Of a stretch of 64,000 bases of DNA, positions 24,970 through 62,231 are shown piece by piece. A program made the translations under genes and the position numbers. How positions within the stretch are numbered: the stretch's first letter is position 1; each line of letters opens with the position of its first letter. The stretch is from Diogma glabrata (lineage: Eukaryota; Arthropoda; Insecta; Diptera; Cylindrotomidae). The notes under the pieces are model-generated. The model had not been told where the DNA came from, searched no databases, and was given only the letters and a program-made list of their open reading frames with translations. The stretch covers positions 201,439,602 to 201,503,601 of the forward strand of contig OY856188.1 in assembly GCA_963693315.1 (NCBI GenBank), in the 5' to 3' direction.

Positions 24970-25623
24970 TAATTTCAGACTATACTACTCGAAATACCTT
25001 GAAATCTTACCACTGAAAAATAAAACTGCCACAGAAATAGTTAGTAAACTAAAATTGATATTTGCTGTTCAGGGAATTCCTAGAAGAATTATTGCGGATA
25101 ATATGCCTTTTAATTCCTTTCACTTCAAAAAATTTGGTAGCGATTATGACATTGATATAGTTACAAGTAACCCATTATATCCTAAATCTAATGGGGCGGC
25201 TGAACGTTTTGTACAAACTGCCAAGAGTTTGGTATTGAAATGCAGTAATAGTAAAATAGAATTGTGGCTAGGGCTACTTGAATATCGTAATAGTCCTATA
25301 AATGATTTAGGTGGGTTATCTCCAGTTGAGCTCTTGATGAGTAAAAAAACCAGAACTTTGCTTTCTGCAAAGGAAACATTATTTAAACAACAGTTTATTC
25401 CCAATTTAAAACATAATTTTAATAGAAGACCACAGAGATATAAACGTTATTATGATAGAGGTACAAATGTCAGGCCAGATTTTCGCAATGGTGATGAAGT
25501 GTGGGTGCAAGAACGAAAATTTTGGAGGAAAGCGAAAGTTAACAAATGCCACAATACTCTCCTTTCGAATTGGATTGAACTAGATGATGGTTCTGCGGAT
25601 ACGTACTTCGTTGAAGATAAGAA
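24930..25623 (+). pseudogene. Gypsy-1 integrase catalytic and C-terminal domain, ending at the inversion breakpoint
   Basis: Catalytic residues visible: D in LVISDYTT (about 24985), D in RIIADNMPF (about 25100), and E in GAAERFVQTAKSL (about 25200). The C-terminal chromo/SH3-like part follows (GDEVWVQERKFWRKAKV, then LDDGSADTYFVEDK). From 25624 the same open frame continues into the protease of gypsy-2, making a fused frame of about 363 codons (25055-26146). I explain this as a junction of the 35.7-kb inversion. Confidence 0.85.
25607..25623 (+). other. Left breakpoint of the proposed inversion (17-bp homology)
   Basis: TTCGTTGAAGATAAGAA occurs here and, inverted, at 61315-61331. Sequence to the left is gypsy-1 integrase and to the right gypsy-2 protease. 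Both elements read the 17-mer in the same codon phase (F-V-E-D-K). Confidence 0.85.
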
Positions 25624-26740
25624 TCGTTCTAAATTTTGGATTCTATTAAATGTAAATAACATAAAAATTAAATATGAAATTGATAGTGGGTCTGCTGTAA
25701 CCATAATTAACGATTACGATAGAACTAAATATTTCAATGAAATAATTTTAGAAAAACCAGATATCGATCTTGTTAGCTACTGCAATTTTAAAATTCCGGT
25801 TTTAGGTTACTTAAATGTTAATGTATATTACAAAAATGAAAATATAAATTTAAAATTATATGTCGTAAAATCGGACAGGCATCCTTTGCTCGGACGCGAG
25901 TGGCTTCGTAAATTAAATTTAAACTGGAATTCGGTTTTCGAAAATAAAGTTTTACAGAATTGTAATACAGTTAATACTATTTCTAATATTGGTCACGATA
26001 CCATGCTGGGAAATTTGATTATTCACTTTCCTAATGTTTTTGATAAAGATATTGGAAAAATTAAAACTATTCAAGTAAAGCTTACTATTAAACCCGATAC
26101 TATACACCGGTACTTATTAAAGCCAGATCCGCTCCTTTTTCTTTAAAATCCGGGGTTGAAAATGAATTAGATACGCTTGAAGCAAATGGAGTCATTAGTA
26201 AAGTAGATTATAGCAGATGGGCTACGCCTATTGTACCCGTTCGTAAAGCTTCAAACAAAATTCGTTTGTGTGGTGATTATAAAATCAGAATCAAACCAAA
26301 TTTTATTGTGGATGAACATCCACTTCCTACTATTGAAGAATTGTTTGAATCCATGGCGGGTGGCGATAAATTTACCAAGCTCGATCTAACTCAAGCCTAC
26401 TTACAACTAGAAGTTGCTCCAGAAGATCGTGAATTATTAACTTTGAGCAATCATAAAGGGCTTTACCGACCTAATCGCTTAATGTTTGGAGTAGCGTCTG
26501 CTCCAGCCATATGGCAAAGGCATATTGAAATCATTTTGCAAGATATTCCTGGAGTCAGTGTGTTCTTAGATGATATTAGATAAGTCACCGGCCCTGACGA
26601 TAAAGCACATTTTGATAGAGTCGAAGAAGTTTTTAAAAGACTCAGTGCATACAACATAAGAGTAAATCTCAATAAATGTGAATTCTTCGCAGAAAAAATA
26701 GAGTACTGCGGGTATATAATTGATAAGAATGGCACCCATA
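25624..26740 (+). pseudogene. Gypsy-2 protease and reverse transcriptase
   Basis: Protease has IKYEIDSGSAVTII (catalytic D-S-G) and HPLLGREWLRKL. A frameshift near 26143 precedes RT: NELDTLEANGVISKVDYS, WATPIVPVRKASNKIRLCGD, KFTKLDLTQAYLQLEV (first catalytic D), the NRLMFGVASAPAIWQR template grip, and the catalytic box VSVFLDDIR. A TAA stop lies two codons after the two catalytic aspartates (26581-26583). The frame then reads on through VNLNKCEFFAEKIEYCGYII. Confidence 0.87.
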
Positions 26741-27650
26741 AGAGTCAAAAGAAAATTGAGGCGATACAGAAGATGCCTGTGCCACAAAATAAAGAACAGG
26801 TGCGTGCTTTTGTTGGTTTCATCAATTTCTATGGGAGGTTTTTTGTAGCTTTAGCGACACTTATATACCCAATCAACAATCTATTAAAAAACAATGTTGA
26901 TTTCGTTTGGGACGAATCGTGTGATAAAGCATTTAACGCAGTCAAAACGGAAATACAATGCGATAAATACCTGGTAAACTATAATCCCAAACTCCCTCTT
27001 ATTCTCGCGACGGATGCTTCACCATACGGAGTCGGAGCTGTACTCAGTCATTTATATCCGGGCGGGTCAGAAAAGCCAATTCAATATGCCTCACAAACTT
27101 TTAATAGTACGCAGCAGCGCTATTCACAAATTGATAAGGAAGCCTATGCTATAATATATGGTATTCGAAAATTTTATCAATTTGTTTATGGAAGAAAATT
27201 TACTTTAATTTCGGATAATAAGCCAATTATCCAAATTTTTTCCCCTCAAAAAGGCCTGCCTACACTTTCAGCATCTCGTATGCACCATTATGCATTTTTT
27301 CTACAATCATTCGATTATGACATTCGTTATCGTGATACCAAAAAACATGCCAACGCTGACGCAATGTCAAGATTGCCTTCAGACGATTCTTCGTTTAGTA
27401 TTGAAGAAATTGATATTGTGGAAGTGAACATGATAAATACATTACCTGTAACAGTTGATGAATTATCTAAAGCTACATTAGCTGATAAAACTTTATCGAT
27501 TTTAATACAAGGGTTAAAAAACGGTCGAACCGTTAAACCAGAAAATCGTTTTGGAATCTCACAAGATGAATTCACCTTACAACAAGATTGCATTCTACGG
27601 GGTATAAGACTTTATATTCCAAACCAACTTTACGCAGTAAGATACTAAAT
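26740..27650 (+). pseudogene. Gypsy-2 RT thumb and RNase H
   Basis: An open frame covers the thumb (VRAFVGFINFYGRF), then RNase H: LILATDASPYGVGAVLSH (catalytic D), SQIDKEAYAIIYGIRKF (catalytic E region), FTLISDNKPI (catalytic D) and a KKHANADAMSRLP end. The linker toward integrase follows. The next domain is in another frame (shift at about 27590-27640). Confidence 0.87.
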
Positions 27651-28778
27651 GAGTTACATTCAGCCCATTTTGGCATAACAAGAATGAAATCGCTCGCTAG
27701 AGGTTACTGCTGGTGGGAAAATATCGATAGAGATATCGAGAATATGATTAAGGATTGTACAAACTGTCAACTAAGACAATCTAATCCTACTAAAACAACG
27801 ATTCATTGTTGGGAAACAGCTACAGAAGCATTTCAACGAGTGCACTGTGATTTCGCTGGTCCTTTTATGGGAAGTTATTTTTTCATACTTGTCGATGCTT
27901 TTTCTAAATGGCCAGAAGTTAAAATAATTAAAAATATAACTACTGAAACTACGATAAAAATTTGTCGTGAAATTTTTAGTTCCTTTGGAACACCTTCGGT
28001 GTTAGTTTCTGATAACGGAACTCATTTTGTATCAAATGAATTCCAAGAATTTCTAAAACAAAATGGCATTGAACGCTATGTGCAAACCATTAAAGATAAG
28101 CTTAATGCCCTAGATACGACCAATTCAAATTTACATTCTACATTATGTAACATTTTGCTAATGTACCGCAAAATGATCCATCCAGCTAATGGAAAATCTC
28201 CAGCAATGCTGAATATAAACAGACAAATTAGATCTCGGACCGATTTGATGATACCCGAAAATATTCTAAAATTACGGGAAGAGCCCTCACATTCTAAAAT
28301 CATTCGTCATTTAAAACTGGGAGATAGAGTGATTGTACGGGAATATATTTCAAAATATACCAAATGGAAATTCGGTAATATTATTGAGAAGTACGGTAAA
28401 TTACACTATTTGGTAGAATTAGATGATGGAAGACAATGGAGACGTCATATCGATCAAATTCGATGGGTTGGTCCTCATGCAGGATTTAGAAAAAAATCAA
28501 ATACAGCAGATTGCGATAATTCCGACTATTCATTCGGCAACCCTTCCGAATCACATGAAAATTCCTCGGACATTGAAAATACTGATTATACATTGCCCTT
28601 AATACTGTCCACTGCTGTTCCTGGTAATGACGCTCCTCCGATTTCGGTCAATATAAATAAATCAATTTCAAATGAAATACAATATCAGTCAAATTGCAAC
28701 GCTAAAGACCAAACCGTTGTTCAAACACCGAAAAGACCAAAAAGAAACATTAAAGTACCTCAAAAATTAAATTTATAA
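27588..28778 (+). pseudogene. Gypsy-2 integrase, with a small internal deletion
   Basis: The HHCC finger is present (ELHSAHFGITRMK, then CTNCQ). The catalytic core has D in HCDFAGPF and D in LVSDNGTHFVSNEF. The segment after EFLKQNGI jumps straight to ERYVQTIK, losing about 20 residues between the second Asp and the Glu, although the Glu itself remains. The C-terminal domain has LGDRVIVREY and YLVELDDGRQWRRHIDQIR. A low-complexity tail ends at 28778. Confidence 0.87.
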
Positions 28779-28857
28779 ATTTTATTTGGTTGAATTATAT
28801 AAATATTTAAAAAACAAATAATTTAATATTTGGAAATTAAATTGAAATTTGAATAAT

Positions 28858-28873
28858 TTAAGGGGGAAAGAAT
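28858..28873 (+). other. Gypsy-2 polypurine tract
   Basis: A purine-rich run (AAGGGGGAAAGAA) lies directly before the 3' LTR start TGTCATATC, the place where plus-strand priming occurs in LTR retrotransposons. Confidence 0.75.
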
Positions 28874-29643
28874 TGTCATATCTTTACAATAATTACCTAA
28901 ATTTAGGAAATTTAATTATATCAGGTAGCACCAATTTAGATATAAGGCCATGTATATTCTTGTGAAATTCATTATAATAAAAGAAATGTAATACATTACA
29001 CGTAGTGCGTTTTATTTAAATAATAGTAGTTTAATCAATGAGTGAATAATGAAGTAGTTTATTCTCAAGCAAAGGTTCAAAATTTGAGCGATGCACGAGC
29101 GAGAATTTTAATTTGCGAGAGAATAAAATTTATTATTCACGAATCGATTACAATACTTTATTCTCTGACAAAGAATTGTTTGTGTATTATAAAAAATAAA
29201 AACATTTTCTTCAATTAAAACAATAAATCTTTATTGTTTTAATTGATAAATCAAATTTCTTAATAAAAAAAACCCAGATGATAAAAAACGCCCTTCTCAT
29301 ACAATCAACCAAGTTCAACTAAACGAAATAAGAGAATTTAAATTAAAATTTGATTTTTGAACAAAACTTATCAAAGCAATTGTGATTAAAATTTGCAAAT
29401 AATTTTAATGAAATCAAAACAATTTGACCAATTGGAATCATACCAATTGAATAATGATAATTTTTTTATAGGAAAATTTTCATTAGACAATAGGTTAAGT
29501 TCATTAGGCTATAGGTTAGAAAACAATACAATAGTACATACTATTATTATCGAAAATACATACAAATAAAGCTGATATAATTAAATGGAAGAGAATAAAA
29601 TATTAATCACCATATCATTTCTAGATTGTTCCAAAATATAACA
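28874..29643 (+). repeat. Gypsy-2 3' LTR, split by a 580-bp insertion
   Basis: 28874-29013 and 29593-29643 together match the intact inverted LTR at 62407-62601 with about six differences. Starts TGTCATATC, ends ATATAACA, and is followed by duplicated target ATATT. Confidence 0.87.
29014..29592. mobile_element. Unidentified insertion in the gypsy-2 3' LTR
   Basis: This stretch is absent from the partner LTR. It begins with a nearly perfect hairpin (29042-29140) whose inner arms are rich in GAGCG/CGAGCG. The rest is AT-rich with no open frame. Terminal repeats are unclear, so the class is unknown. Confidence 0.6.
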
Positions 29644-29845
29644 ATATTAATAACGCTACTTAATTTCGATATTTCTTTTTTACGTTACGGTACGAATAAC
29701 GTTTTGCAACACTGCTTGTGATGCTAAAAATGATTTCCACGTGTTTAGTCAGCATCTATGACATGATCGTTACATTACGTTGCTGTGTTACTATATCCGA
29801 ATGCACTTGTTAATGAAAATTTCATTGTTTTAAAAAACAAAGAAA

Positions 29846-30043
29846 ATGAATCGGCATCACTTTCATCGAAGAAATTTGCCACTAAAATTTTCCACATTTG
29901 ATAAATTACGTACCGCATTAACTCTGTTTTGTGCAACATTTTTCATTATGGATTTTTGTGGAAAATTATCTGACGCTAAATGGGTGACCACTGCCCCTTC
30001 TTTAGATTCCAATTTATTTGGACTAAAAAGTGAAATAAAGTAA
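29846..30043 (+). CDS. Possible small single-membrane-span protein (65 aa)
   Basis: ATG in an A-rich context (AAAGAAAATG). The product has a basic, His/Arg-rich N-terminus (about residues 1-25), one hydrophobic helix (about 26-45, ALTLFCATFFIMDF) and a polar C-terminus. Codon choice looks ordinary for the host genes and there are no repeats in it. I do not recognise a family. Small mitochondrial or ER membrane proteins have this look, but a chance frame is possible. Confidence 0.35.
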   Translation: MNRHHFHRRNLPLKFSTFDKLRTALTLFCATFFIMDFCGKLSDAKWVTTAPSLDSNLFGLKSEIK

Positions 30044-30511
30044 TTTGTATTTTGAGATCAATCTTGTAAAAGATTGAATTCGTGAAACAGTAGAATTAAT
30101 TGTTTAATTGTTATTTATTTATTTGAAAAAAAAAATATAAATGCATAACAAATACTTTTTATGACACGTTTTTAAGAGGTTAAATTCGAGTGTCAAAAAG
30201 CTAAACCTTTAGACAGAGGCGTAGCTAGGGGGGCGGGGGGGCGGTCCTCCTCGGGTGTCACCCGTTTTGGGGTGACACCCGACCGTAAAAAACTTAAACA
30301 AACCATCACAATGTTTTCAACGATAAATCACTTAGAAACCATTTTAACCAGGTTATCCATATAATTTTGATTTATAAGTTGTAATAACTTATAAATGTGT
30401 CCTATTAATGTGTTATTGGTTCAAAAAGAATCTATTCTACTTTTTTAAATTTTTGAGTTATTACGTGAAATAAAATTTTAACAATATTAATCGAATCAAC
30501 ATGTTGAGCAT

Positions 30512-31073
30512 TGATAGACCGAGAGCCCGTGACGGCCAGACCTTCGTTATTTTATAAAAGCTGAAAGTTTCTTTGCGCATACCCCCTACTCAGGTAGGAA
30601 CGATTAGCGATATATGAAGTTTGGATCATAGTGGCTTTGGCAGGGAGCAGGTTCCAAAGGGACCTCCAAAGTTTCGTGAAAGTATAAAAGCTAATTTTTT
30701 TATATATTCTTCGGGATAGTATTAGAAGTCACGTCACCCATTGCCAGACACTTACTATCGTGGAAACCCCCTGCCAGACACCCTTAAACTTTAAAGTTTA
30801 AGGGTGTCTGGCAGGGGGTTTCCATGAAAGTAAGTGTCCGGCAATGGGTTACGTGACTTCTAATACTATTCCGAAGAATATATAAAAAAATTAGCTTTTA
30901 TACTTTCACCAAACTTTGGAGGTCCCTTTGGAACCTGCTCCCTGCCAAAGCCACTATGATCCAAACTTCATATGTCGCTAATGGTTCCTACCTAAGTAGG
31001 GGGTATGCGCAGAGAAACTTTCAGCTTTTATAAAATAACGAAGGTCTGGCCGTCGCGGGTTCTTAGTCTATGA
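30512..31073. repeat. 562-bp palindrome without spacer, nested in the hAT
   Basis: Two arms of about 281 bases meet at a perfect 24-base centre (30781-30804, CCCTTAAACTTTAAAGTTTAAGGG). Scattered differences between arms (for example near 30515/31070, 30598/30988 and 30690/30900) show that the arms have diverged after formation. There is no coding capacity. It could be a fold-back element or an old hairpin duplication. Confidence 0.9.
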
Positions 31074-32455
31074 ATACCATCACCACAATTACTCAATAGC
31101 TTTGAATATTCCTATAGATACCATATTGACTTTTTTTTTACGGTATATTATTTAGTATGCAAGAATGATTCTTTAACGACGAGGTCTGAAAACACATATA
31201 CTGAATAATGTAAAGGAAAAATGGTTTACGTCGATAATGTGGCACCCTTTGTCGATAGGGTGACACCCTTGAGTTACAATGTTTCTATTCCAAAATTATT
31301 TCTAAAATATCAGCTTAACTTTACTACCTAATATATGTTTTACATTTCAAACATATTAATTGCAAACACCTAAGGAAACTAATAAACAATCAAATCACCG
31401 TGTTTGTAAATGATCTCAAAATAATTTTTTTTCCTTTATCTTGGAACTCAAGGAATAAATTGGAATAGATCGTTTTTCAACACACAAACAAATTGTATAT
31501 GTTAACTATATTTTATGGTTGCTACGAACCATACTATGGTGATAGATAACCAAATTTTATGGTTGTTATTATAGATGCAGAACCATACTATGATTATAAT
31601 TGACCACATTTTATGGTTCTCTAAAATATGATCACTTTAACCATAATTTTTTTTTGTGTGAATGGACACAAAAATAATTACTGTGGAATAAAATGGCAGT
31701 TATGCAATTACTGCAGTTTTGCAAATTTGTATAGGAAGATACATACTCATACTGTTGCTTTTCAGTTTTATATATTTATATATTTGAATTAAATGAAAGT
31801 TTATCATTTAACATTACATTTTGTTAAGTTTTAAATCCCTTGTAAATTTCAAACTCATCAAGTGATTCTTTTAGAGATCCTTGGCTACATAAATGTAAAG
31901 TCTTCAAATTTTTTTAAAAGTGGTGTAGCTATTGTTATTAACTATGTAAATGGTTTGCAAAAATAGACTTTAAATTTTGTTTATTTTTCTTCATAGGAAG
32001 GTATTCCTTAAATCAGTCTTTAAAACATTTTCCGGTTTTCCCGATGTAAAATTTTTCACAAAAATTACATTTAATTTTGTAAAAAATTGTGCATGATTCT
32101 AATTGGATATTTAATTTTGGTTTCAATTTTTTATATAAAATATCTTTTAGGATGTTATATTATACCTATATTTTTTTAAATAGTTTCTCATAATATTAGG
32201 TATATGATTTGTATATTCCATTTTATCAAATATTATTTAATATAAGTTGTTACAAGGAAATTTAAATAAATTAATTTTCTTGGCGGTGTATTTAGTCGTT
32301 AACACAGTGTACTTATTATGGACTAAACATACATGTATCCTACAAATATATTTAGAATTAATGCTTTGCTGATATACTGATATGCTATAATGAAAAATAT
32401 TTTTTTAGATTTCGTTTAGCAAATATCCCAAAAAATACATATGCCACGAGGAGTT
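31074..32455. other. Non-coding interior of the hAT
   Basis: AT-rich, with short repeated ACCATA(C/A)TATGGT-like phrases at 31515-31650. No open frame. Probably leader or intron sequence of the transposase gene, or decayed insertions. Confidence 0.45.
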
Positions 32456-32459
32456 CATA

Positions 32460-35385
32460 CTTCTTAAAGAAAAAGTGGATTCCAGCAGAGAAAGACCAAA
32501 CAGGCTAAAATAGATGCAGTTCAGAGCATATCTGGATTCATCTATATATATGTTACAAAACCCGATGATATCCAAGATTCATCAAAAGAAACTGATTCTC
32601 ACGTTGATGCAACGAATGTTTCAGAGAATATTGGCTCATCTTCGGAAAGTAACAGCGACAATACAGAATTAATAATGAGAACCTATGATGAAGATGAATT
32701 AGAAAGAAATAATGAATAATGACAGTGATAATGCTGCTAATGCTTCTACTATTGGAGACAGTATTTGCATGGGTGAATCACTTCAGGACTTAAGAACATT
32801 GGAATATGCTCGTCTCTGATAATGTTCGCATTGAAATCATAAAAAAAGGAAGTGAACATTTTCAAAATAAAGAAGGGTCGTTTGTTACTGTATCTAGACA
32901 CGGGTTAGACTTAAAAGGTGATGTTCGTCATCTTTCTAAAGAATGATATTATAAAGTGATGCCTAGTGGTGAAAAAATTCTGCGGTCATGGATGGTTTAT
33001 TCTCCTTTAAATAATAACCTGTACTGCTTCTGCTAATATACGACAGCTGTCACCAATAGTAATAATACAAAATCTACGACTGGATTTCAGAGGTGGTGGA
33101 ATCTTAATCCCAAAGTAACCGACCATGAAACTTCAAATGAACATCTGGAGAATTTAGAAAAGTGGAAAACTTTGGAAATGAGGTTAAAATTTCATAAAAC
33201 GATAGGAGACTCAGCATTGCAATTATTAGATAATGAGGAAGTGGAAACATCTTTTATCCAGATTATTGGATATAATTTTGTTTTTATCTAAACAAACCCT
33301 AGCATTTCGTGAACATGATGAAGGATAAAGTTCTTCAAATAAAGGCAATTTTAAGAACTAGTCAATCTATTGTCAAAGCATGATGTAGTGTTAAAAGAAC
33401 ACATTTTGAATTTGAAGCATGGTAAATCACCAAAAGTATCATATTTGTCACCAGATATCCAAAATGAGTTCATAAATGTTTTAGCGAACCACGTAAAGTT
33501 TAAGCTTGTCAACGAAATTGAATCGGTTAACATATTGATCAAATGTCAGAAGTGATTCGTTATGTGAAAATTGATGGTAGAAAAGTGGAAATCAAGGAAG
33601 TATTCCTTGAATTTTTTCCTTTACATGGAAAAAAGCCGCTGATTTAAGCGATGGAATTCTTACACTGAAAAAAAAAATTGATGTAAGGACAACCTCAGCT
33701 CGAAGTTGGCAGTTTATTATTCATGCAAAGAAAAGATATTTACAAACAATTTCACCGTGATTGGGACAACTACTTAGTACTCACTAACATTTTTCTGACA
33801 ACAGAATGAGGTTTATTTAAAATATAAAGTGATACATCCAATATAACAGTAGTTGAATAAAGTTAATAACTATTTCCATGAAAACATATTTCTTTGGCCT
33901 TATATCATGAATTTTTCATTTTAAAATTTAAGAATTTGAGATTAATTGAACTATATTTTATTTTCACATAAATATGATTGATTATGATTTTTCACATAAA
34001 TATGATTTTTATGATTTTTCACATAAATATCATGTGATTGTCTCAACTACATCAGCTTAAATTGTACAGTTGTTGAATCAATCTCGTAGTTCGATACGCC
34101 ATATCTGCCCGCACGGTGAGGTTGAGACAACTGCATTTCGATTGGAAATAGGACATGCTTTTTTCAGTGTAAAAATCTTGAAAATGACGGTATAGATGTT
34201 ATGAATTGTCGTTCCCAAGGTTAGGATAATGCAGCTGTTATGAGTAGTATACATGGAGGAGTGCAAGCTATTATTAAAGCAAAAAATAAAAAAGCAATTT
34301 TTGTCGGCTGCATAGGTCATTCAACTAATTTATGTGGCCAGCATTCATTTGCACAAAATGTAGCTTGTGTAACATTTTTCGGAACAGCGGAAGCCATTTT
34401 TACATGTTTTTTTGCTTCGACTAGCCGCTGGGAAGTGCTTGTTAAATACAACAAAGCAACTGTTAAAAGACTCTTAACAACGCATTGGAGTGCTCATTAT
34501 GGTGCAGTAAAAGTATTGGCCGAAAATTTAATTCAATTGTGGCTGCAATTGAGAAATTAAGTGATCAACAAGAAAATGTAGACACTAGACTCTAGAAGCG
34601 CTGCACAGAACCTTATCCATGCAGCATGTAATTTTACGTTTTTTTGCTATCTTTTATTTTGGAATGATATTGTAATGGAAATAATATCTGTGCTCAGATT
34701 GGATTGCAAAGCAAAGGCTTGAATATTGAACAATTAGTTACAAAAATAGTCAATTCGTAACGAAGCCACATTGTAGAAGAGACAATAGATCTTGCTGCGA
34801 AAAAATCGGAGGACTATGACATTCCAATGGAAAGCCGAATTCGTCGTAAAAACGTACAAAACGAATGGCTAGTGAGTTTGCCCCTGATGTTGGACTGACA
34901 CTGAGAGCTCAACTTAAAAAGGACATGTTGGAATGTCTTGACCGATTCAGTGTTGAACTTCGAACTAGACTGAAGTCAGTTCAAGATTTAGCTTCATTGT
35001 TCGAGGTTGTTCAGACAAACACTTAGCTTTTGACGAACAGTGAAGAGCTGAAATTATCTGTATCAAAATTTACCGGTTTTTATGATGAGGTATCGGCAAC
35101 AGAACTCCTCATAGAGATACCAAGATTGAGGAGGCATGTAAGAGCGGCCAATGTACAGTTTCTAGCTGGGTGTATCTAGATTTTTTGAAATTCATCGTAG
35201 AATGTGATTTTTCAGAATTTCTTCCAAATCTTATGGTCGCACTAAAGTTATTTATGACTATTTGCGTATCAGTGGTTTCGTGTGAGAGGAGTTTCAGCAA
35301 ATTAAAATTAATTAAAAATTACTTGCGGGCAACAATGACCCAGTGTAGCTTATTAATGATAATGCTCATTTGTATTAATTAAAAA
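32460..35385 (+). pseudogene. hAT transposase remnant (TTF-finger, DUF4371 and dimerisation type)
   Basis: Pieces in order: a Ser/Asp/Glu-rich N-terminal region (about 32520-32720); a TTF-finger-like remnant near 32890-33110; ETSNEHLENLEKWKTLEMRL (33130); SPDIQNEFINVLANHVKFKL (33450); GGVQAIIKAKNKKAIFVGCI with GHSTN (34250-34325); ASTSRWEVL and TTHWSAHYGAVK (34420-34510); and the C-terminal dimerisation block with VVSCERSFSKLKLIKNYLRA (35275-35335). Many stops and shifts lie between. The order and motifs fit hAT transposases related to zinc-finger MYM-type proteins. Confidence 0.85.
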
Positions 35386-35676
35386 AGATTATAAATTACG
35401 TTTATCGGCTTTTTATTATTATTGACAGTTTTTATTTTTGGGGTGACACCACAATATCCGCCCCGGGTGCCACCCATGCTAGCTACGCCACTGCCTTTAG
35501 ATCTATACAAAAAGTAATAAAAGGCGTGTTTTATTTGCCAAATTACACTAACAATTACATGTATTCAATTCCGAAATGTCAAAACTCACAAATTGTTGGT
35601 TTTGAAAATCTGGAATAGCGGCTTAGTTCGCGTGTTCATCACCAACTGCGCACCGTTTCAGTTTTTTACATTTATA

Positions 35677-36216: not shown

Positions 36217-36599
36217 TATAGATTGTCATTAAATGGAGTTTTGTTTATATTTTTTCTAATTCGGCATTTGGTGTTTGACATTTGTTGATTGTTTTGATGC
36301 TAATATATATGCAAGTCCATATAGAAATCTCATGGATAAGGATTTTGATATTTACATATGATTTATTGACATTTACATTTGATTTATTGACATTTACATT
36401 TTATATTTTCTGTACAAATTCTACCAACCTCTAGAAAATAATATGTGTACAAATCCAATTCTCGGTTCGTTTTATTTGAAATCTTTTTTTTGACAGTTCA
36501 ATACGAATTCCGGTTGGGCAAATAAAACACAGCTAAAGCTAAACCTATAGATCTATTACAAATTATTTAAAGTTGTGTTTACATTAAGATTACTTTTAT

Positions 36600-40751: not shown

Positions 40752-40789
40752 ATAATTGTTGATATTTTTTTTTAGATAAACTTTTAGCT

Positions 40790-52600: not shown

Positions 52601-52679
52601 TATTAGAATTGGAACTATTTGAATTAATTGACATATTACTGTCACTGTTTTCCGATAAAAGAGAATTATTATTACTCAT
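49659..52679 (-). pseudogene. LINE-B ORF2 (endonuclease + reverse transcriptase), two frameshifts
   Basis: ATG at 52679, 30 bases after the ORF1 stop. Endonuclease motifs: VVLQNIRSLRRNFDLS, LFLVGDFNIDIM, GTCIDHVYHR and KITDHNMIILHINY. Reverse transcriptase: LAVVIPLHKKGSKLDLNNYR, SKVFEKIVKTQL, NQFGFQKNKSTEDALI, ALFVDISKAFDTVNHKVLL, IGVPQGSVLGPILFLIYFNS and catalytic VAFADDLAVIY, then FRYLGLILDEKLKFKPH. The C-terminal GPYLFNSLPDKLKNE block lies near 49820. The middle frame is open for over 700 codons. The frame shifts near 52260 (in the endonuclease) and near 50150 are the only breaks seen. A CR1/Jockey-like affiliation is inferred. Confidence 0.88.
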
Positions 52680-52709
52680 GGTATACTATCTTTTGGTTTA
52701 AAAATAAAT

Positions 52710-53669
52710 TTAATTTATTTTATTTAAATCACTAACAACTTTGATCGGAATAACAGGACTACCATCTGCTTTGCGTAACAAAATTGTTCCATTTCTAATC
52801 CAGATGTATTTGTATGATTTCTCTCGCTTTAACCGGGATGCCTCTTTGAAAAGTTGATGCCTTAATGGTGTGAGATTTTCGTTGACAAAAATTTTTTTCT
52901 CTGAAGAATTCCCAAATATTTTTCTTACAGTGAGATGTTTAGCAAATTTACGCTTCTGCATGATAACGGTATTTTTAGTTTGCGTGGACGAAAAATTCAA
53001 CACCACACATGATGAGGTTTTTAATTTGTAACACTGTTTCACATCACTAGGGGAAATGTTTAGCTGCAAGCCAATATTACATACTGAAATCGCCATAGTT
53101 TTTATGTACATATTATCAATGTTTTCAGGCAGCCCATGAATTTCAACGTTATTGTTTCGATTATTCTGGTCAAGGTTATCCAGTTGTTGCTCAAGAGAAT
53201 CCATTTTCATTTTCAATACAGCATTTTCCTTTTTAAGGTCCTCTATAACACTCATTTTTCCAGTTAAAGTAATAACTTGCGATTTTATATCTTGTAAAGA
53301 TAATTCCAGATGCTGCCATTTATCATTAAAATCTTTAGTTAAATGCAATATTTGTTGAAAAATGAAGTTCAAATCTAGAGATGTGTTAACAATGTTATTC
53401 GAGTTTGGTTCTGGAGGTAGTACCTTTTTTTCATTCTGATTCAAATTTTTAGTTGAGCGGAGTGCTTTCGAGTCTAATCCACGTCGATTACATCTATTCA
53501 AGTTATCACAGTTATCACAATGCCATGAGTGATCAACTTCATTAAAATAGTCAATATCTTCTTGGTTTAAATTAACACATGCACTGTGCCAATATTTCTG
53601 ACATTTGCCACATATTACTTTGGGCTCATCACGATTTACTTTTTTTGTACACACTGCACACAACGACAT
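52710..53669 (-). CDS. LINE-B ORF1: PHD-finger, coiled-coil RNA-binding protein (319 aa)
   Basis: The first ATG (53669) gives MSLCAVC. A PHD-type zinc finger follows (residues about 4-53: C-x2-C, ICGKC, W-H-x2-C, and the W-H-C-x2-C end), then a linker and a coiled coil (about 115-165, with LKMKMDSLEQQLDNLDQN). After it comes an RRM-like region beginning NNVEIHGLPEN (about 170), and a basic C-terminal domain. PHD fingers in ORF1 are known from CR1-like LINEs and may guide chromatin association, while the rest acts as nucleic-acid chaperone. The frame is intact, unlike ORF2. Confidence 0.85.
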   Translation of the reverse strand: MSLCAVCTKKVNRDEPKVICGKCQKYWHSACVNLNQEDIDYFNEVDHSWHCDNCDNLNRCNRRGLDSKALRSTKNLNQNEKKVLPPEPNSNNIVNTSLDLNFIFQQILHLTKDFNDKWQHLELSLQDIKSQVITLTGKMSVIEDLKKENAVLKMKMDSLEQQLDNLDQNNRNNNVEIHGLPENIDNMYIKTMAISVCNIGLQLNISPSDVKQCYKLKTSSCVVLNFSSTQTKNTVIMQKRKFAKHLTVRKIFGNSSEKKIFVNENLTPLRHQLFKEASRLKREKSYKYIWIRNGTILLRKADGSPVIPIKVVSDLNKIN

Positions 53670-54086
53670 TTTTACTAAAACCAATCTTTTGCTTTAATAC
53701 AATTTTATGAAATAAATGATAGAATGTTGCTGTTTATAATTATGATTGAAAATTGAATTGAAAAAGTAAAACAAACAAGTTCACGTAGACGAGTTTATAT
53801 AACAAAGGAGCTAACTGCAAAACGTTTTTTTTTTTAATGAACTATGTTATTTTATTTGTTTTTATGGTATTGAAAAACAGCTTGGATTATTTATTTCTTA
53901 TTAATAATTTAACATGAATTTAACTTCTTAATAATTTAACAGTCGGTTAACATCGATTCAAAAACAAAATGATTTAAAAATTATTTAATCCTTTAATTAA
54001 TTATATTAAAATAAATAAATATCACCACAATCAATAAACAACTGCACCCCACAACAGTTGAATTATTAATGAAGTATTATCTACAT

Positions 54087-55825
54087 CAGTGATGCCAGAT
54101 TTTCAAAAATGAATTTCCCGTTGACGTATCGGAAATTCCCGATTTTTCCCGTTTTTTTAAGAAAAAATCCCTCAGAAATTCCCATCAAGTTTTCAATAAA
54201 AATATACATATAAATTCAATTATTTATTAAAAAATCTTCAAAAACCACCACAATTATAACAAAATTTATCCTTCCGACAACTATAAATATAGGTTTCTCT
54301 CTGTTTTTTACGACTTTATTTGTGTATGTTATTAGTCTTAATATATAGAATGAAACAAACAGCTGTTATTGTTATTCTGTACGGCGAATGTGGCGGAACA
54401 CAATATAACAATTTATTTGATTGTATTGAATGCTGAAATAAATTTTATTTTATTTTATGAAAATTTGATTGCATGTTATAAAAAATCAAACATTTTCAAC
54501 CAAAAAGCAAACATTTTCGACCTGTAGCCCTATTCCGGTACATCGTGAAATAGGAATTGGGAAATAAATTGTAGTCATTTTTCATAGCTAGTATATGTCC
54601 GTGCCGCGGGAAATAACAAATTCGTATTAGAAAATATTTCGTTATTTCATTTATTGCACTTTTTTCTCAATTCACAATTCCCAGAGAAATGCCGGAATAG
54701 ACGTACTGATTATATAAAAGACAGTCAATTCAAACTGAAGCGCATGTCCCTCTCTCGAATATTAAAAAAGGCAAAGACTACTATGATTAAATTGAATTAA
54801 ATTTCCAGATGATTGTTTTTTGGTTTCTCATTAGTATAAACTTTGATGTCTTTCATCAGGTAGGGCTTTCATTAGGCTTTTTATAGGCTTTTCATTTTCA
54901 AAATACCAAATAATTAAATAGATATCGAAATTAATTCAAATTTATTTAATTGTTTCGAATTAATTATTCAAAAAAATACAATAAAATTCATCGTTTTTCC
55001 TTACTCGTTTTACTTGTTTTATCAACAAATTTTAAAATAATTCAATTTAAATTAATAAATGTTACTCTATCGGAAGGATAAAACGTTGTATTGGGTTCGT
55101 TTTTAATGAATTTTATTCTCTCGAAAATTTGTAATGCTGCTTGTTTTCCTTGAAAAATAAAATATTGCATTAAACACTTACATAATATATTACTATTGTT
55201 TCCATTCTCCATACAACTTGTGGAATAAGAAGGAACTGCGATAAAATGGAGCATTAAATCTATTAAAATTGAGAAGGACATTTTTTAAAAGAAGTAAATA
55301 TGTCTTGATTTCATGATTTTCCAAAAATTTTTAAATTGTAATAGCTCTTTTTCGATACGTAAACAACTGCTCAGAAATAAAATAGTGATGCCAAACATCC
55401 CAATTTTTTTGTAGTTCCAACTTTTGTATAGCCAGCTTGTAGTTCCAGGTGATTTCATTTCTCGTTTCGCAGCATCAAAATATTCCTGAAATTCAGATAA
55501 CATGGTGGTCCGTTGGGGTTTTCAAAATGTACCTATCTCCCTAAGAAATATTTAAACAGCAGAAGGCTTAAATTCCATCGCGGATTCGACAATACTAAAC
55601 CCGATAGATGGCATATACATTTAAGTAAAATTATCGGGTGATCGACATCTTTCTGAAGCCTGGTACAAAAATTGGTTGGTGCAACCATTTCAAAATAAGT
55701 TTTAATTTAAAACGATTCTATTATTAAATGTGAAAAATCCCGCACTTTCCAAGTTTTTTCCCGCTTTCCCGTTTTATACGAAATATCCCGCAAACGGGAA
55801 AAAATCCCGCGATCTGGCAACACTG
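54087..55825. mobile_element. Non-autonomous hAT transposon (1.74 kb) with 8-bp target duplication
   Basis: Termini CAGTGATGCCAGAT and ATCTGGCAACACTG are flanked by ATCTACAT at 54079-54086 and 55826-55833. Subterminal TTCCCG/CGGGA repeats crowd both ends. No transposase is visible. Two minus-strand frames (55503-55285 and 55281-55042; one begins MLSEFQEYFDAAKREM) may be a decayed passenger gene. I do not recognise them. Confidence 0.9.
54526..54707. repeat. Small inverted repeat inside the hAT
   Basis: CCCTATTCCGG at the left and CCGGAATAG at the right enclose about 180 bases with further imperfect pairing (AATTGGGAAATAAA/ CAATTCCCAG). Probably a small MITE nested in the hAT. Confidence 0.5.
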
Positions 55826-55845
55826 ATCTACATTCACCATCAGCT

Positions 55846-56600
55846 CAAATTTGATAAATGATTTAAACGTTGATCTAACGACAATCATGGATTGGGATTT
55901 TGTTAACAGTTTTTCAATACGAGTAAATTTCAATACGAGTAAAACACAGGTTTGCAAATTTTCTAGATCATTCGCACCTAGTCTGTTTCCTCTAAAGTTT
56001 GACTCCAAAGATCTTGTGGAGAAAGAATCTGTAAGACTTCTAGGAGAAGAAGTTGAAAACAATATGAAATGAAATTCTCATATTTTCGGTCCAGCTAAGA
56101 ACACTGTTCAAACATTTGGCTTTTTGGGACAATGTCATACGTTTTTCAATGGCGAACAGCTTCTTTTAATATGCAAATCATTTATACGTCCCTGCATGAA
56201 ACACTGTTCTTATATATGGGGTATATGGTGTCTCGATTCTCTACAGTGCATAGCAAGATTGACAACTTAACTTTTACTAATGAGCCTGATTCCTTGCACA
56301 CAGAAAAAATTTTGTGATCTAACAATTTTCTATAAGTACATTAGGAATGAACGAACCTCCACAGCGATCAAATCTATTTTTCCTGAATCAGCAAACATAT
56401 CGCGTTACATCAGAGCAAATGTTGTGGCCAATCATTTTACGGTTCATATAAAAAAGTGCAGTTCACAGTGATTTTTTGAACAGAGCCTATCATGGATTTT
56501 TTCCAGATAGCTTTAATTCTCAGAGTTTTAAAGCAAGTGTTAATAAATTTCTCAAAGAAACTTAATTTCTTTAAACTTAATCCCAACTTCTAGTTGGTAT
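55846..56600 (+). pseudogene. Older LINE: C-terminal RT region, 3' of the nested insertion
   Basis: Continues the fragment at 49273: SNLINDLNVDL, VNFNTSKTQVCKFSRS, SVRLLGEEVENNMK, LLLICKSFIRPCM, CSYIWG, DLTIFYKYIRNERTS and a final SFKASVNKFLKET. Several frameshifts. The 3' untranslated part runs to about 56650 and matches, inverted, 48560-48640. Confidence 0.78.
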
Positions 56601-57852
56601 GGTATCTTCGGCTATTCATAGACGTTAATTTATAATTTATTATAATTAACACTAAACTTTAACTTAAAAAATACATCATTAACCCCAGTCTGCCGATTTA
56701 ACGCGTATAATTAAACGCGTATAATTAAATCTACAAGGTTTCCGACTCATTACAAATATTGGAAGAAAGACATTTATGAAAACCGATTTTCCTGTATGTG
56801 ACCAGCTGGATAATACTTTCACTGCTAGGAATTCAACCTCAGTCCTAATATTGATCAAATGTTCTAGAGGTGGATCATCGGAGCTATTCTTGGTGAATAC
56901 ACAGCTTGCAAGTTTGTAGGCAGACGCCTGGAGAAAAACGCTTTGAGCAAATAATATGCAGTGATGATGATGTTACTATATGTGCTAAAGTTTCACTGGT
57001 TTAGTCTTTTAGAAACAAAAAAGCATTTAATTTTCATATTTAATTTCGGTTGGATTAAATAGTCTGCCTACGTTGATTACAATTTATAACATTTTGTTTC
57101 ATAAATTACAGTGTTTTATTCATTGTGATAACACAGATAAGGCAACCTAAAATTTCAGTTCAGTTCAAATTAGTTTATTATCGAATTTGTTTTAAAATTA
57201 ACATTATATTTGCAATTATAAATGTGCGAGAATGAACGACAGTAATTTGACTGAGAATGGTACTCAGAAGCAAGAATAAATAAATTCGTCTGCTTAACCG
57301 TTATTATAATAAACAGGAATTAAAAAGAGCAAATCACTTTTAGAAAACAGAAAAATAACTATTCTACAGCCATCGTTTCTTTGCGAAACTTTGACAAAAG
57401 CCAAAAAGAAAACAGAAATTGCGCATAGGTTTAAGTGCCTAATGTCTTCAATGGAACGCTAAAAGTGGGTTTTCAAGTTTTACTAGAAATTTATGTTCTG
57501 TTCGTAAAAATGCCGAGTCTTCCAGCTACAAAAAGGCTCGAGTTTCTATGGTTTTCTTGAAATTATTACGAGCAATTAAAGAAGTCATCAAACGTTCTGG
57601 TGAAATCTAGAGAGAAATCTGATAGATTTACCTATGCCGACTGATGACAAAGCACCTCTAACTATCTTGCTAGGTCAGTACTGAATGATAATTACAACGA
57701 AGTTAGACTGGTCCACGGCTATTTTGCACATTTTCAGATAAGACGCTCACTGAACATTTTGAGTTGCACCCTATTTCGAAAATGAAGATCTCATTACTCA
57801 TACCGCAGTTTTCACTTCATGAAGATTATATAGTCTTGTCTATTGTATAGTC
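56601..57852. other. Intergenic, probably old repeat debris
   Basis: A 15-base unit (ACGCGTATAATTAA) is tandemly duplicated near 56699. Short degraded coding-like text occurs around 57360-57660, but no family could be assigned. The right end is the genomic flank of the copia element. Confidence 0.4.
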
Positions 57853-57857
57853 GTTAT

Positions 57858-57972
57858 TATTGAAACAACCGATTGAATTAAAGAATATTTTATTAATGAA
57901 AAAACTTCAGACAAAAACATAAACATAAAAAGCAATGCAACTAGGATTATATTATTAATTGACTCTCCAACA
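57858..57972 (-). repeat. Copia 3' LTR (115 bp)
   Basis: Inverse of TGTTGGAGAGTC ... TTTCAATA, matching the 5' LTR at 19251-19365 with few differences. The flanking ATAAC is identical to that at 19246-19250. Confidence 0.85.
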
Positions 57973-58189
57973 CGTCCCTTCAATTAATATTCATCTTCTT
58001 GACATGGAAGCTATGTTTGATTTTGTTGAGATTCTTGTCGAGATTTGTTGTCTTCTGATGAAACATTTTGAAGATCAATTAATTTTTTTCTCAAAAATCT
58101 CTCGTACATGTGTTTTGTTCTATATTGTGATATACTGGATTCTGAACAAGTTGGCTTGCTCCAAGATTATCTGCCAGAATTTTTTGTAG

Positions 58190-59640
58190 GTTGATCAATG
58201 AACTGTGTAAGTCCAATTTTGGTTAGCATATTTCGAAGATATATAGCTTCCTTCCCAGTAGAGCACAGGGCCATATATTCTGCTTCGGTACTACTCAAGG
58301 ATTGTTGGTTGTAATTTGCTCTCCCACGTAACTGGACCACCAGCTAAACAAGAAATGTAACCGGTGAAAGAATGCCTACTCTGTGGTTGACTAGCCCAAT
58401 CTGCATCGCAGAAAGCAAATAGTGATTTTTCTTATAGTCAATGGTGTTCAGCAAATACTTAGCAACGTGCTTTGCAGCAATTAAATGATCCTTGTGAGAA
58501 TTAGAATTCAACTGAGACAATTTAGAAATCGAGTGAAGAATATCCGGTCTTGCATACAGTCTAATGTATAGAAGAGATCCTATCAATGATTGATGAATAG
58601 TAAAATTTACCTTCTTACATTCTTCATCACACTGCACGTACTTTGTTGGGATTGTGCCAGAATTGATTGGTGCATTACATATTCTTAAATCTTCCAAGTT
58701 GAATTCCTCCAGTATTTTTGTGAGTAACTCTTAAAACTCCATTCTTCCCCTCTCTCAATACTTCCATGCCCAGAAAGTAATTGAGAGCACCTTTGTCCAC
58801 ACAATCTTGTTCACACAATTTGTTCTTGATGTCGTTCTTTACTGAGATAACAACTTCTAGAGACTTCGAAACTACCAATATGTCGTCGACATAAACTACC
58901 AAAATTGTGATGCCATTCTTCGAATCATTTCTTATATACAAATAATTCTTAGTTTTGAGTTTCTCGAACCCCATTCGAACGAACTCCTTATGTAGCGTTT
59001 CATTCCGCTCACGACCGAATTGTTTGAGTTCTCATAGCTACCTTTGAAGTTTGCACACCTTTTTGGGATATTCTCCATTCACAAAACGTTCGGGCTGTTG
59101 CATAAAGATCTCATGATGAAGTTGTCCATTCATATATGCCCCAACCACATCTACTAGGTGAACATACATCTACAACTCCACAGCTACTGCAATCAACAAA
59201 CGGATTGTGGAGTATCAGGCAACAGGCGCAAACGTCTCTTCAAAATCAAGTCTCTTCCTTCTGTTTGAAACCTTTGGCTACAAGTCTGGCCTTGTACTTT
59301 TCAATGCTACCATCCTTATGTCGCTTAATCGCAAAGACCCATTTACATTTGATAGCCTTCGTTTTTTTGGCTTATCGATCAAAACTCAGGTATCTTTCTC
59401 TTCCAACTGTGAAATTTTTTTAGCCATTGTCTTTCTCCATAGCTCACTGTCATCACGTTCTAGTGCTTCCATGAAATTTTGTGGTGTTGATAATTCAGAG
59501 TAAGCAAATGATTTATTTGCAGCAGCTACAAACTCTCCATATCTGTCCGGAACCTTCTTCGTTCGTACCGGTCTTTGACTAACCTCTGGAGTCGGAGAAT
59601 TTCGAATAACTTGTTGTAGACATTGCGCATTTTCTTCCGT
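58190..59640 (-). pseudogene. Copia reverse transcriptase and RNase H
   Basis: Reading down from 59640: a linker with PVRTKKVPDRYG, the RT entry MEALERDDSELWRKTMAKKI, a degraded palm (59380-58980), the catalytic ITILVVYVDDILVV box, KGALNYFLGMEVLRE, then SLIGSLLYIRLYARPDILHS and KHVAKYLLNTIDYKK. RNase H ends near 58200 with a degraded KLQPTILEQYRSRIYGPVL segment. Frameshifts near 59390, 58980 and 58690. Confidence 0.83.
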
Positions 59641-60800
59641 CATCGTCTACGCTCTCACACTCCTCTTCTCCATCCGAAGAAATTGTCTGCACCAACTCAG
59701 CATTTTGAACTTTAACTATCAATGGAAAAAATATTAGTTCAGATTCCTTCAATTTCTCACCCTTATGTTCTGAGAATGAATTTTCAATAAACTTCACATC
59801 GCGGCTGATGTTGATCGTCTTGTTCTGCAGATTAAAACATCTATAGCCCTTAGATTGCTGATCGTACCCAACAAAAATATTTTCAACACCTCTGGCTTCA
59901 AATTTTCCGTGAGCTGGCTTCTTGTCCAGTAAAACAACTCGTATACCAAACACCTTCAAATCCGTGACAACTGGCTTCACTCCAAACCATATTTCGTGAG
60001 GTGTCTTGTCTCCAAGAATCTTTGTTGGACTTCTTTTTCTTGGGTAGATTGCTGTGTTGATTGCTTCCGCCCACAGAAACATGGGTACACCGGACTGCGA
60101 CATCATGCATCGAGCAATACCTAATGCCGTCTATTCCCTCGCTCAGCAACTCCGTTCTGTTGTGAAGTATAGGGAATGGTAAGCTCTCGCCGGATGCCAC
60201 TATTTTCAAGATGCTTCGTGAAATCTTCATTCAATATCTCACCCCCATTGTTAGTTCTAATCGCTTTTACACGCTTGCCACAATGATTTTTGGCAAAAGA
60301 CTGGAAAACTTTGAACTTTTCGAGAGTTTGCGATTTCGTCTTCAAAAAATAAACGAACTTCATACGTGAGTAATCATCAGTTGTTTGAAGAAAGTACTTC
60401 CACCAGAAGACACTGTTCTCATCGGTCCACATAGATCTTCATAGACAATCTCCAACAACTTCGTACTTCTTGATTTACTTTCTTTTGGAAATGGTTTTTG
60501 AACAATCTTTCCCTTCATGCAAATTTCACACTGAAATCAGAACCGGGATCCGCAAAGTCCGAGCCATAGACCATATTTTTGTTCTTCAAATCTTTCAAGC
60601 CTCTAACATTTAGATGCCCGTACCTACCATGCCACTTTCGTAGATCAGATCCACCTCTGACAGCTGCCAAGTTTTGTTTCTTTACTTTGTATACGTACAA
60701 ATCATCTTCTCTAAAACCTCTGAGAATCATCATTTCTTCTCAAGCCCATTGTGTCAAAGGATGTCTGACCTTCAATCCACCTGCAGTCGCTTTAGGTATC
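59579..60800 (-). pseudogene. Copia pre-integrase domain and integrase
   Basis: The pre-integrase part has DLYVYKVKKQNL and RKWHGRYGHLNVRGLKDLKN (zinc-binding His pair). The integrase core holds KAIRTNNGGEILNEDFTKHL, where the usual Asp of the second catalytic motif is Asn, and IPYTSQQNGVAERGNRRH (Glu of the catalytic triad). MFLWAEAINTAIY, HEIWFGVKPVVTDLKVFG and a GYDQQSKGYRCFN C-terminal block follow. Several frame breaks at about 60515, 60430 and 60120. Confidence 0.83.
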
Positions 60801-60805
60801 GATAG

Positions 60806-60998
60806 TGTAATATTTGACATGTATTAAATAATAATAAACAATGTGTTACATTCCTGGCTATTAAACGAATGCTAGTTTATTCTATCAAATAATATTACAT
60901 TCTTTCACTAACATTACCCATACATTTACATGTATAATTGACTTATAATTAGTGTTGCCATATAGCTTATAATTTCCTATATATACATGTATATGACA
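60806..60998 (-). repeat. Gypsy-1 3' LTR (193 bp, intact)
   Basis: Minus-strand start TGTCATATACATG, end AATATTACA. It matches the split 5' LTR (20391-20544 + 21087-21124) with about five substitutions and a 5-base indel. It is followed by the duplicated CTATC in copia. Confidence 0.87.
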
Positions 60999-61009
60999 TC
61001 TCCCCCGTT
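60999..61009 (-). other. Gypsy-1 polypurine tract
   Basis: AACGGGGGAGA on the minus strand directly precedes the LTR start. This marks it as the 3' LTR of an element whose body lies at higher coordinates (before inversion, gypsy-1). Confidence 0.75.
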
Positions 61010-61314
61010 AACCTTAAGTAAATTCCATTATTATTATACATTTTTTTTTAAAATTACAAATACAGTTCATCAATATTTTATCCTATATGTCTCAACTAAT
61101 TATACAAAATAATATTTTCTTATTTACCTCCCCCCGTAAAGTTATTTCTAAATTATTTTTATTTATATATTATATACATACATATATACATATATATACT
61201 TAGATATTTCAAAAGGCTAATTTTTGTATCTACAATATAATAATAATTAGTTTTAATGATTAAAGAAAAAAAATTTTCTGCCAGATATTGAAATTTATCA
61301 ACAGAACTATGTAC
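61010..61314 (-). other. Gypsy-1 3' non-coding region and end of integrase
   Basis: Reading from the breakpoint, about 17 codons of hydrophobic tail end at a stop near 61260. The rest is AT-rich with an (AT/ATAC)n run at 61170-61200 and a second G-rich tract (GGGGGGAGG at about 61128-61137). Confidence 0.6.
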
Positions 61315-62231
61315 TTCTTATCTTCAACGAAATTTATTTTATCTATACGATTACTTGTGCTTGTTTTGGCCTTGAGACAAGCCGCAGCAATATGCCCCTT
61401 TTTCATACAAAATGTACAAGTTGAACTTATATGAGAACATTTATTTGCCAGGTGTGTCTCGAGCCCACAACGATAACACTTATTTTTCTTTTCAAAATGT
61501 ATATTTTTATTATTACTGTTACTCTGTTTACCTTTATTATATGATTTATGCTGATATGATTTGCCTTTATGTTGCATATGCTGAACTTGTAGATCAGCAG
61601 TTGCTTTGCTTTGTATTTCAGCACTCCCTTTTTGAGATAATTCCATCGCTATAGATGTATCAATTGCCTTTTCCAAGGTTAAATTTCTGCATTCCAATAA
61701 TATATTTCGAATTATTGTATTCTTTAGTCCGAATACCAGTTGATTACGAAGAGCAGTGTCGAGATATGGTCCGAAATTGCAATTAATTGCCAACCTTCTT
61801 AATTTTGTAATATATTCGTCCACGTTTTCATTATCCCCTTGTTTAGCCATGTGAAAACGGAAATTTTCCACAATTTCTAGCGGCGATGGATTGTAGTAAT
61901 TTTCCAGTATATCTACAATTTCCTGGAAAGTTTTTGTTTGTGGTTTTACAGGAGCTAATTTGTCGCAAATGACATCGTAAGAAGACTGCCCTATGTAGTG
62001 TAGTAACAGGTGAACTTGTGTAGTTTCATCGATAATATTAAAGATCGAGAAAGAACCACGTAATCGATCAACCCAACGCGTCCATTTTGTATTTGATTTG
62101 TTGAACATTTCAATCGTAAAAATACTTTGTATTGGTTGAGGTTGAAACATATTTGTATTTTGTGTATTTGTAGCACTTGTTGACGTATTATCATCTTCTG
62201 GATTGTTATTATTATTTTTTGGTTTACCCAT
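61260..62231 (-). pseudogene. Gypsy-2 gag fused at its 3' end to the gypsy-1 integrase tail
   Basis: ATG at 62231. An Asn/Thr-rich start leads to the capsid-like core with IFTIEMFNKSNTKWTRWVDR, VHLLLHYIGQSSYDVICDKL and MAKQGDNENVDEYITKLRRL. Two zinc knuckles CYRCGLETHLANKC and CTFCMKKGHIAAAC (CCHC each) occupy about residues 252-290. The frame then reaches the 17-bp breakpoint and ends in foreign sequence at 61260. Up to the breakpoint the frame is intact. Confidence 0.87.
61315..61331 (-). other. Right breakpoint of the proposed inversion (17-bp homology)
   Basis: Inverse of TTCGTTGAAGATAAGAA (25607-25623). To the right is gypsy-2 gag and to the left the gypsy-1 3' tail. Confidence 0.85.

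What the first reader, a model, noticed from the sequence alone, without database searches (positions are those of the whole stretch)
25607..61331. A 35.7-kb inversion reconstructed from three split retrotransposons and a shared 17-bp sequence
Seen: copia halves at 19246-20390 (+) and 60805-57853 (-); gypsy-1 at 20391-25623 (+) and 61314-60806 (-); gypsy-2 at 61332-62606 (-) and 25624-29648 (+). Gypsy-1 and gypsy-2 both break at TTCGTTGAAGATAAGAA, present once at each site in inverse orientation. Undoing one inversion yields three complete nested elements whose target duplications all match: ATAAC (copia), CTATC (gypsy-1 in copia), ATATT (gypsy-2). Known: inverted dispersed repeats can recombine to invert the DNA between them. 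Inferred: exchange between head-to-head gypsy elements inverted the block carrying POLR3C, MEMO1 and FECH after all three insertions.
Basis: partly seen in the sequence, partly recalled or inferred. Interest (0 to 1): 0.92.

Follow-up and report, generated by a model that had tools for sequence, protein, structure and literature searches.

The report
Gene block flipped between two retrotransposons
A 35.7-kb piece of a eukaryotic chromosome carrying three ordinary genes was flipped after breaks inside two dissimilar retrotransposons, most likely by error-prone rejoining of broken ends rather than by recombination between matching sequences.

Summary
The inversion is well supported in this assembly. 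Three LTR retrotransposons (one copia, two gypsy) are split across the window with their LTRs inverted and matching 5-bp target duplications. Other copies in the same genome show that the halves belong side by side: copia with the exact 5-bp overlap in 9 of 11 other copies read, gypsy-2 in 13 of 13 read, apart from a missing spacer. Neither chimeric junction was found elsewhere.

The proposed cause is not supported. The two gypsy elements share no long DNA homology. The shared 17-mer is the scar of a ~96-bp deletion seen only in this gypsy-2 copy, and it occurs exactly twice in 1.33 Gb, once at each junction. The two gypsy-1 relatives that reach the break lack it. It was therefore probably copied from gypsy-2 to both junctions during break repair.

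Because the scar lies inside the 17 bp, I favour one end-joining event in which the gypsy-2 ends first tried to rejoin and copied each other, then joined gypsy-1 ends. An older deletion followed by a 17-nt staggered break is the main rival. Ordinary in kind, unusually well resolved; no reads or relatives could be checked.

The parts
25624..61314 (.). inverted block (35,691 bp; 35,725 bp with both 17-mers)
   Evidence: inverted LTR pairs, target duplications, halves adjacent in other copies
25607..25623 (+). 17-mer at junction A, from gypsy-2, holding the scar of a ~96-bp deletion
61315..61331 (-). 17-mer at junction B, inverse copy
25596..25606 (+). 11 bp at junction A without counterpart in the two gypsy-1 relatives; ends in GTAC
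61311..61314 (-). GTAC next to the 17-mer on the gypsy-1 side of junction B, matching GTAC at 25603-25606
19251..20390 (+). copia, left part (target duplication ATAAC at 19246-19250)
57858..60805 (-). copia, right part (target duplication at 57853-57857)
20391..25595 (+). gypsy-1, 5' part (target duplication CTATC at 20386-20390)
60806..61310 (-). gypsy-1, 3' part with 3' LTR (target duplication at 60801-60805); the stretch upstream of the LTR has no second copy in the assembly
61332..62601 (-). gypsy-2, 5' part with 5' LTR and gag-like ORF (target duplication ATATT at 62602-62606)
25624..29643 (+). gypsy-2, 3' part with RNase H, integrase and 3' LTR (target duplication at 29644-29648)
38890..40748 (+). 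POLR3C exons (approximate)
   Evidence: Pfam RNA_pol_Rpc82, POLR3C_WHD, RPC3_helical
42486..43227 (-). MEMO1 exons (approximate)
   Evidence: Pfam Memo on 42486-42719 and 42729-43067
45025..46206 (-). FECH exons (approximate)
   Evidence: Pfam Ferrochelatase

Best explanation
A balanced inversion of about 35.7 kb took place after copia, gypsy-1 (inside copia) and gypsy-2 had inserted. It began with double-strand breaks in two different gypsy elements lying in opposite orientation and was finished by end joining. Shown: the split elements, the polarity, the lack of long homology, and that the 17-mer is a gypsy-2 deletion scar now present at both junctions. Inferred: the repair pathway. Version favoured: the gypsy-2 break lost about 96 bp; its two ends paired at one shared T (two bases if the ancestor had the L002 form) and each was extended on the other, 5 nt onto the left end and 11 nt onto the right, so that both ends carried the same 17 bp. 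That pairing failed, and each end was joined instead to an end of the broken gypsy-1, flipping the block. This resembles polymerase theta alternative end joining.
For: Copia halves adjacent with a 5-bp overlap in 9 of 11 other copies read (7 directly, L071 and L076 by extending the alignment 1-2 bases). Gypsy-2 halves adjacent in 13 of 13 other copies read apart from the missing spacer, and over the length of the element in L062. Target duplications match. No long homology between gypsy-1 and gypsy-2. The 17-mer is only at the two junctions in 1.33 Gb; a 34-bp form allowing 3 mismatches is only at this locus. Its first 12 bases are the left edge and its last 6 the right edge of the missing spacer, sharing one T. 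The scar falls inside the 17 bp: chance about 0.3% for one independent scar, 0.7% for the two deletions of 10 bp or more seen in this copy, 3.4% if ten indels are counted. Passages of PMC5068794 describe single-base priming, interrupted extension and templated inserts averaging about 10 bp.
Against: Copying onto both ends is less usual: in the complex inserts of PMC5068794 only one flank was template in 16 of 17. No source found for 25596-25606 (only 7-9-base matches). GTAC beside the 17-mer on the gypsy-1 side of both junctions fits a staggered break as well. One gypsy-1 relative (L018) has TTCGTAGAA 3 bp past the divergence point, 8 of 9 matching the start of the 17-mer; the other (L019) does not. 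Simulated pairs reach a longest exact match of 17 bp or more in 4 of 200 trials, so length alone does not exclude chance sharing. The scar may predate the inversion. Gypsy-1 has only two relatives reaching the break, and its state before the inversion is unknown.
Confidence: 0.6

Rival explanations
1. Two steps: this gypsy-2 copy first suffered the ~96-bp deletion; later a staggered break with 17-nt overhangs at the scar, and one of perhaps 4 nt (GTAC) in gypsy-1, were filled in and joined the wrong way round.
For: Inverse duplication of single-copy sequence at both ends is the published sign of staggered breaks (passages); GTAC on the gypsy-1 side of both junctions; the 17-mer is gypsy-2 sequence.
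Against: The older scar would have to lie by chance inside the 17 bp (0.3-3.4% depending on how many indels count); the deleted form is seen nowhere else, though it need not be.
Confidence: 0.28
2. One reading: both elements already shared the 17-mer, or a short imperfect microhomology, and exchange there inverted the block.
For: An 8-of-9 match to the start of the 17-mer in one gypsy-1 relative; chance matches of 17 bp or more in 4 of 200 simulated pairs.
Against: No long homology; the whole 17-mer is absent from both gypsy-1 relatives and is a private scar in gypsy-2; gypsy-1 sequence missing or replaced at the break.
Confidence: 0.08
3. Assembly or library artefact.
For: No reads could be examined; no alternative haplotype found to compare (left flank only).
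Against: No N in the window; both junctions are reciprocal and carry the same sequence, unique in the genome, which a wrong scaffold join would not create.
Confidence: 0.04

Closest known systems
Staggered-break inversions with inverted duplications (Drosophila subobscura O4, O8; D. mojavensis 2h, 2q)
   Same: Formerly single-copy sequence in inverse orientation at both ends, attributed to end joining (passages of PMC5080602 and PMC3355041)
   Different: Where the passages seen give sizes (2h, 2q) the duplications are about 1 to 7 kb; here 17 bp and perhaps 4 bp. Here the duplicated stretch holds a deletion scar and both breaks are inside retrotransposons
Polymerase theta alternative end joining with templated inserts (PMC5068794, PMC2895639, PMC7407515: passages)
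   Same: Single-base microhomology at the scar, short copies of break flanks, loss of about 100 bp
   Different: Copies sit at two separate junctions of an inversion, not inside one deletion; no evidence on the enzyme
Retrotransposon recombination-mediated inversions of human and chimpanzee (PMC2603318: abstract, outline and section 7)
   Same: Both ends in retrotransposons of opposite orientation; size within the reported 166 bp to 81,189 bp; deletions accompany 12 of 49
   Different: Those rest on recombination between similar elements; here no long homology and non-equivalent break places
Ectopic recombination between transposon copies, e.g. Galileo (only a reference title seen; details recalled)
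   Same: Elements at both ends show exchanged target duplications
   Different: Needs homologous copies, not found here

Membership tests
Chromosomal inversion | Features cut by the breakpoints come together again when one segment is reversed | tested here: met
   LTR pairs and target duplications; adjacency in other copies of copia (9 of 11 read) and gypsy-2 (13 of 13 read, apart from the missing spacer). For gypsy-1 only LTRs and target duplication
Chromosomal inversion | Non-inverted order in a relative or another individual | not testable with these tools
   The genome has no relatives in the set (note); no second copy of the left flank
Homologous exchange between inverted repeats (NAHR) | Homologous elements exchanged at equivalent positions | tested here: not met
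   No long DNA homology; non-equivalent break places
Staggered-break inversion | Formerly single-copy sequence duplicated in inverse orientation at both ends | tested here: met
   17-mer of gypsy-2 origin at both junctions only
Staggered-break inversion | The duplicated stretch existed before the event | tested here: inconclusive
   Deleted form seen only at this locus; state on a non-inverted chromosome unknown
Polymerase theta end joining | One or a few bases of microhomology and short copies of the flanks | tested here: met
   One shared T; 5- and 11-nt stretches matching the opposite end
Polymerase theta end joining | Dependence on polymerase theta | not testable with these tools
   Needs genetics
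Ty3/gypsy LTR retrotransposon (gypsy-1, gypsy-2) | LTRs, target duplication, RNase H before integrase | tested here: met
   in gypsy-1 the integrase core itself was only weakly matched (rve_3, E 0.022, below cut-off) but relatives with PF00665 align
Ty1/copia LTR retrotransposon | LTRs, target duplication, copia-type order of polymerase domains | tested here: inconclusive
   LTRs and target duplication met; of the domains only SH3_retrovirus was looked at and found

The most novel reading that the evidence does not exclude
The two junctions of one natural inversion preserve a failed repair attempt: both ends of a single break copied each other across a one-base microhomology, separated, and were joined to the ends of a distant break. 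Identical short sequence at both ends of an inversion would then record an aborted synapsis rather than homology or overhang length, and could be looked for in other inversions.
Probability: 0.45. Interest if true: 0.5.

Novelty: new member of a known kind. Interest (0 to 1): 0.36.

Why it matters
Nested retrotransposons polarise and base-resolve an inversion from a single genome, without a second species. The case also warns that a short identical sequence at both ends of an inversion need not be the homology that caused it: comparison with other copies of the elements indicates that the repair made it. If the aborted-synapsis reading holds, the rule 'inverse duplication means staggered break' needs a check for scars inside the duplication.

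Tried and rejected
Exchange between homologous gypsy elements: disfavoured. Chance sharing of 17 bp: not excluded by length (4 of 200 simulated pairs reach 17 bp or more) but disfavoured because the 17-mer is a private scar. Assembly error: disfavoured, not tested with reads. A source for 25596-25606: only 7-9-base matches in the window. Relatives in viral contigs: 35 stretches matched a pattern, none encoded a relative. Rfam at gathering threshold: no match. The stretch of gypsy-1 upstream of its 3' LTR has no second full copy: the 47 other rows are partial, most at query 108-161, so how much gypsy-1 DNA was lost is unknown, and the two gypsy-1 relatives have nothing like it in the stretches fetched downstream. 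Reading-frame arguments were set aside because gypsy-1 is decayed.

Rows left out of counts: of 23 non-self rows one is gypsy-1 and 22 lie on the gypsy-2 side; 14 of the 22 (13 copies) were read and the 8 weakest (73-83% identity) were not. In one search, of 10 non-self rows two reach the break. In one search, 40 of 63 candidates were scored and 11 of the 39 other places were read. In one search, L066 and L069 aligned only partly at the junction and were not counted as exact. The organism was not identified. A copy check of FECH was asked for once, not answered and not repeated.
Full report
The window lies at G000:C4:201439602-201503601 of an unnamed 1.33-Gb assembly in 1788 contigs. It holds no N.

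Structure. A self-comparison shows three LTR pairs, each inverted across the same block. Target duplications are ATAAC for copia, CTATC for gypsy-1 inside copia and ATATT for gypsy-2. LTR divergences (K2P) are 0.027, 0.026 and 0.051 on 114, 154 and 162 sites; a second gypsy-2 LTR stretch of 51 sites gives 0.020. They are too short to date anything closely.

Do the halves belong together? I compared the pieces separately with other copies in the same genome. For copia, the piece ending at 20390 and the piece starting at 60805 overlap by exactly 5 bp in 9 of the 11 other copies read (7 directly, L071 and L076 by extending the alignment 1-2 bases); L066 and L069 align only partly there. One search listed 39 other places, of which these 11 were read. 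For gypsy-2, the pieces map to one element: in L062 they cover 141-1411 and 1519-4990, with similar divergence on both sides (26 of 1269 and 93 of 3408 sites, Fisher p = 0.21). For gypsy-1 only the LTR pair and the target duplication link the pieces, because the stretch upstream of its 3' LTR has no second full copy. Neither present-day chimera was found elsewhere: 0 of 23 other rows cover both sides of junction A and 0 of 25 cover both sides of junction B; these searches score only the best candidates.

Origin of the 17-mer. In 13 of 13 other gypsy-2 copies read, the left piece is followed by TTCGTTGAAGAT (one mismatch in L012), then a spacer (95 bp in 11 copies, longer in L011 and L012), then TAAGAA and the right piece. 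The 17-mer is thus the scar of a deletion of about 96 bp with one shared T, or two shared bases if the ancestor had the form seen in L002. It occurs in the assembly only at the two junctions; a 34-base form with up to 3 mismatches occurs only at junction A. The two gypsy-1 relatives that reach the site (92% and 78% identical) differ from the window from 25596 on and do not contain it. Of seven proteins related to gypsy-1 integrase, four (P0001, P0002, P0004, P0005) carry Arg-Arg-Asn at the place where the window copy diverges; the window lacks it. So the 17-mer belonged to gypsy-2 and, most simply, the rearrangement put it at both ends.

Why not homologous exchange? The gypsy elements share only short matches, the best 32 bp at 87.5% and away from the breaks. 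The breaks are at non-equivalent places: the end of integrase in gypsy-1, and just after two zinc-knuckle motifs in gypsy-2 (the Pfam match to zf-CCHC is below its cut-off, and the motifs and the protease-like Asp-Ser-Gly downstream are read by eye). Against my reading: a chance 17-bp match is not very rare between sequences of this composition (4 of 200 simulated pairs), and one gypsy-1 relative has an 8-of-9 match to the start of the 17-mer near the break, so imperfect microhomology may have helped.

Mechanism. Inverse duplication of single-copy sequence at both ends is the published sign of staggered breaks followed by end joining (passages of PMC3355041, and PMC5080602). GTAC beside the 17-mer on the gypsy-1 side of both junctions fits a second, 4-nt stagger. 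What that model leaves to coincidence is the scar inside the 17 bp: about 0.3% for one independent scar, 0.7% for the two deletions of 10 bp or more (the other is 48 bp, seen against L062 and L078 but not testable in L077), 3.4% if ten indels are counted. A single event explains both: the gypsy-2 ends, after loss of the spacer, paired at one T and each copied a few bases of the other before separating. Passages of PMC5068794 describe single-base priming, interrupted extension and inserts averaging about 10 bp for polymerase theta; the same passages say that in complex inserts one flank alone was template in 16 of 17, which counts against reciprocal copying. Templated inserts are described as frequent in Drosophila alternative end joining (passages of PMC2895639; see also PMC7407515). 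I rate the single-event reading above the two-step one, not far. Both are end joining.

Known kinds. Inversions tied to retrotransposons or transposons are well documented (PMC2603318: abstract, outline, section 7; PMC12368964: abstract and outline). My searches were not designed to show that a scar inside an inversion duplication is unreported, and I make no such claim.

Genes. POLR3C (+), MEMO1 (-) and FECH (-) lie inside the block. Neither break lies in a host gene that I recognised; the window was not fully annotated. The left flank 18300-19245 has no second copy beyond one 64-bp match, so no alternative haplotype was seen, and whether the inversion is fixed or polymorphic is open.

Noticed in passing
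37043-38643 and 62825-63992: A dispersed repeat in inverse orientation with a DDE_Tnp_4 transposase remnant (ORF 37676-38173), one copy just upstream of POLR3C. Before the inversion the two copies would have been direct repeats.
   Followed up: partly
30510-31075, 35670-36223, 47214-47426, 1616-1774: Long imperfect self-palindromes, 94.7%, 83.0%, 86.9% and 76.7%, perhaps foldback or miniature inverted-repeat elements.
   Followed up: no
29037-29597: Insert of about 560 bp in the gypsy-2 3' LTR, with TTAATCA on both sides.
   Followed up: no
50195-53684: Non-LTR retrotransposon: reverse transcriptase ORF (717 aa) and an upstream ORF with Baculo_FP_2nd and a weak PHD match.
   Followed up: partly
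25596-25606: Eleven bases at junction A without counterpart in the two gypsy-1 relatives and without a clear template in the window.
   Followed up: partly
20544 and 60806-60839: The gypsy-1 5' LTR lacks about 33 bp that end the 3' LTR; the related element in L018/L028 has a match to the longer form.
   Followed up: partly
35089-35379: hAT transposase C-terminal remnant, Dimer_Tnp_hAT.
   Followed up: no
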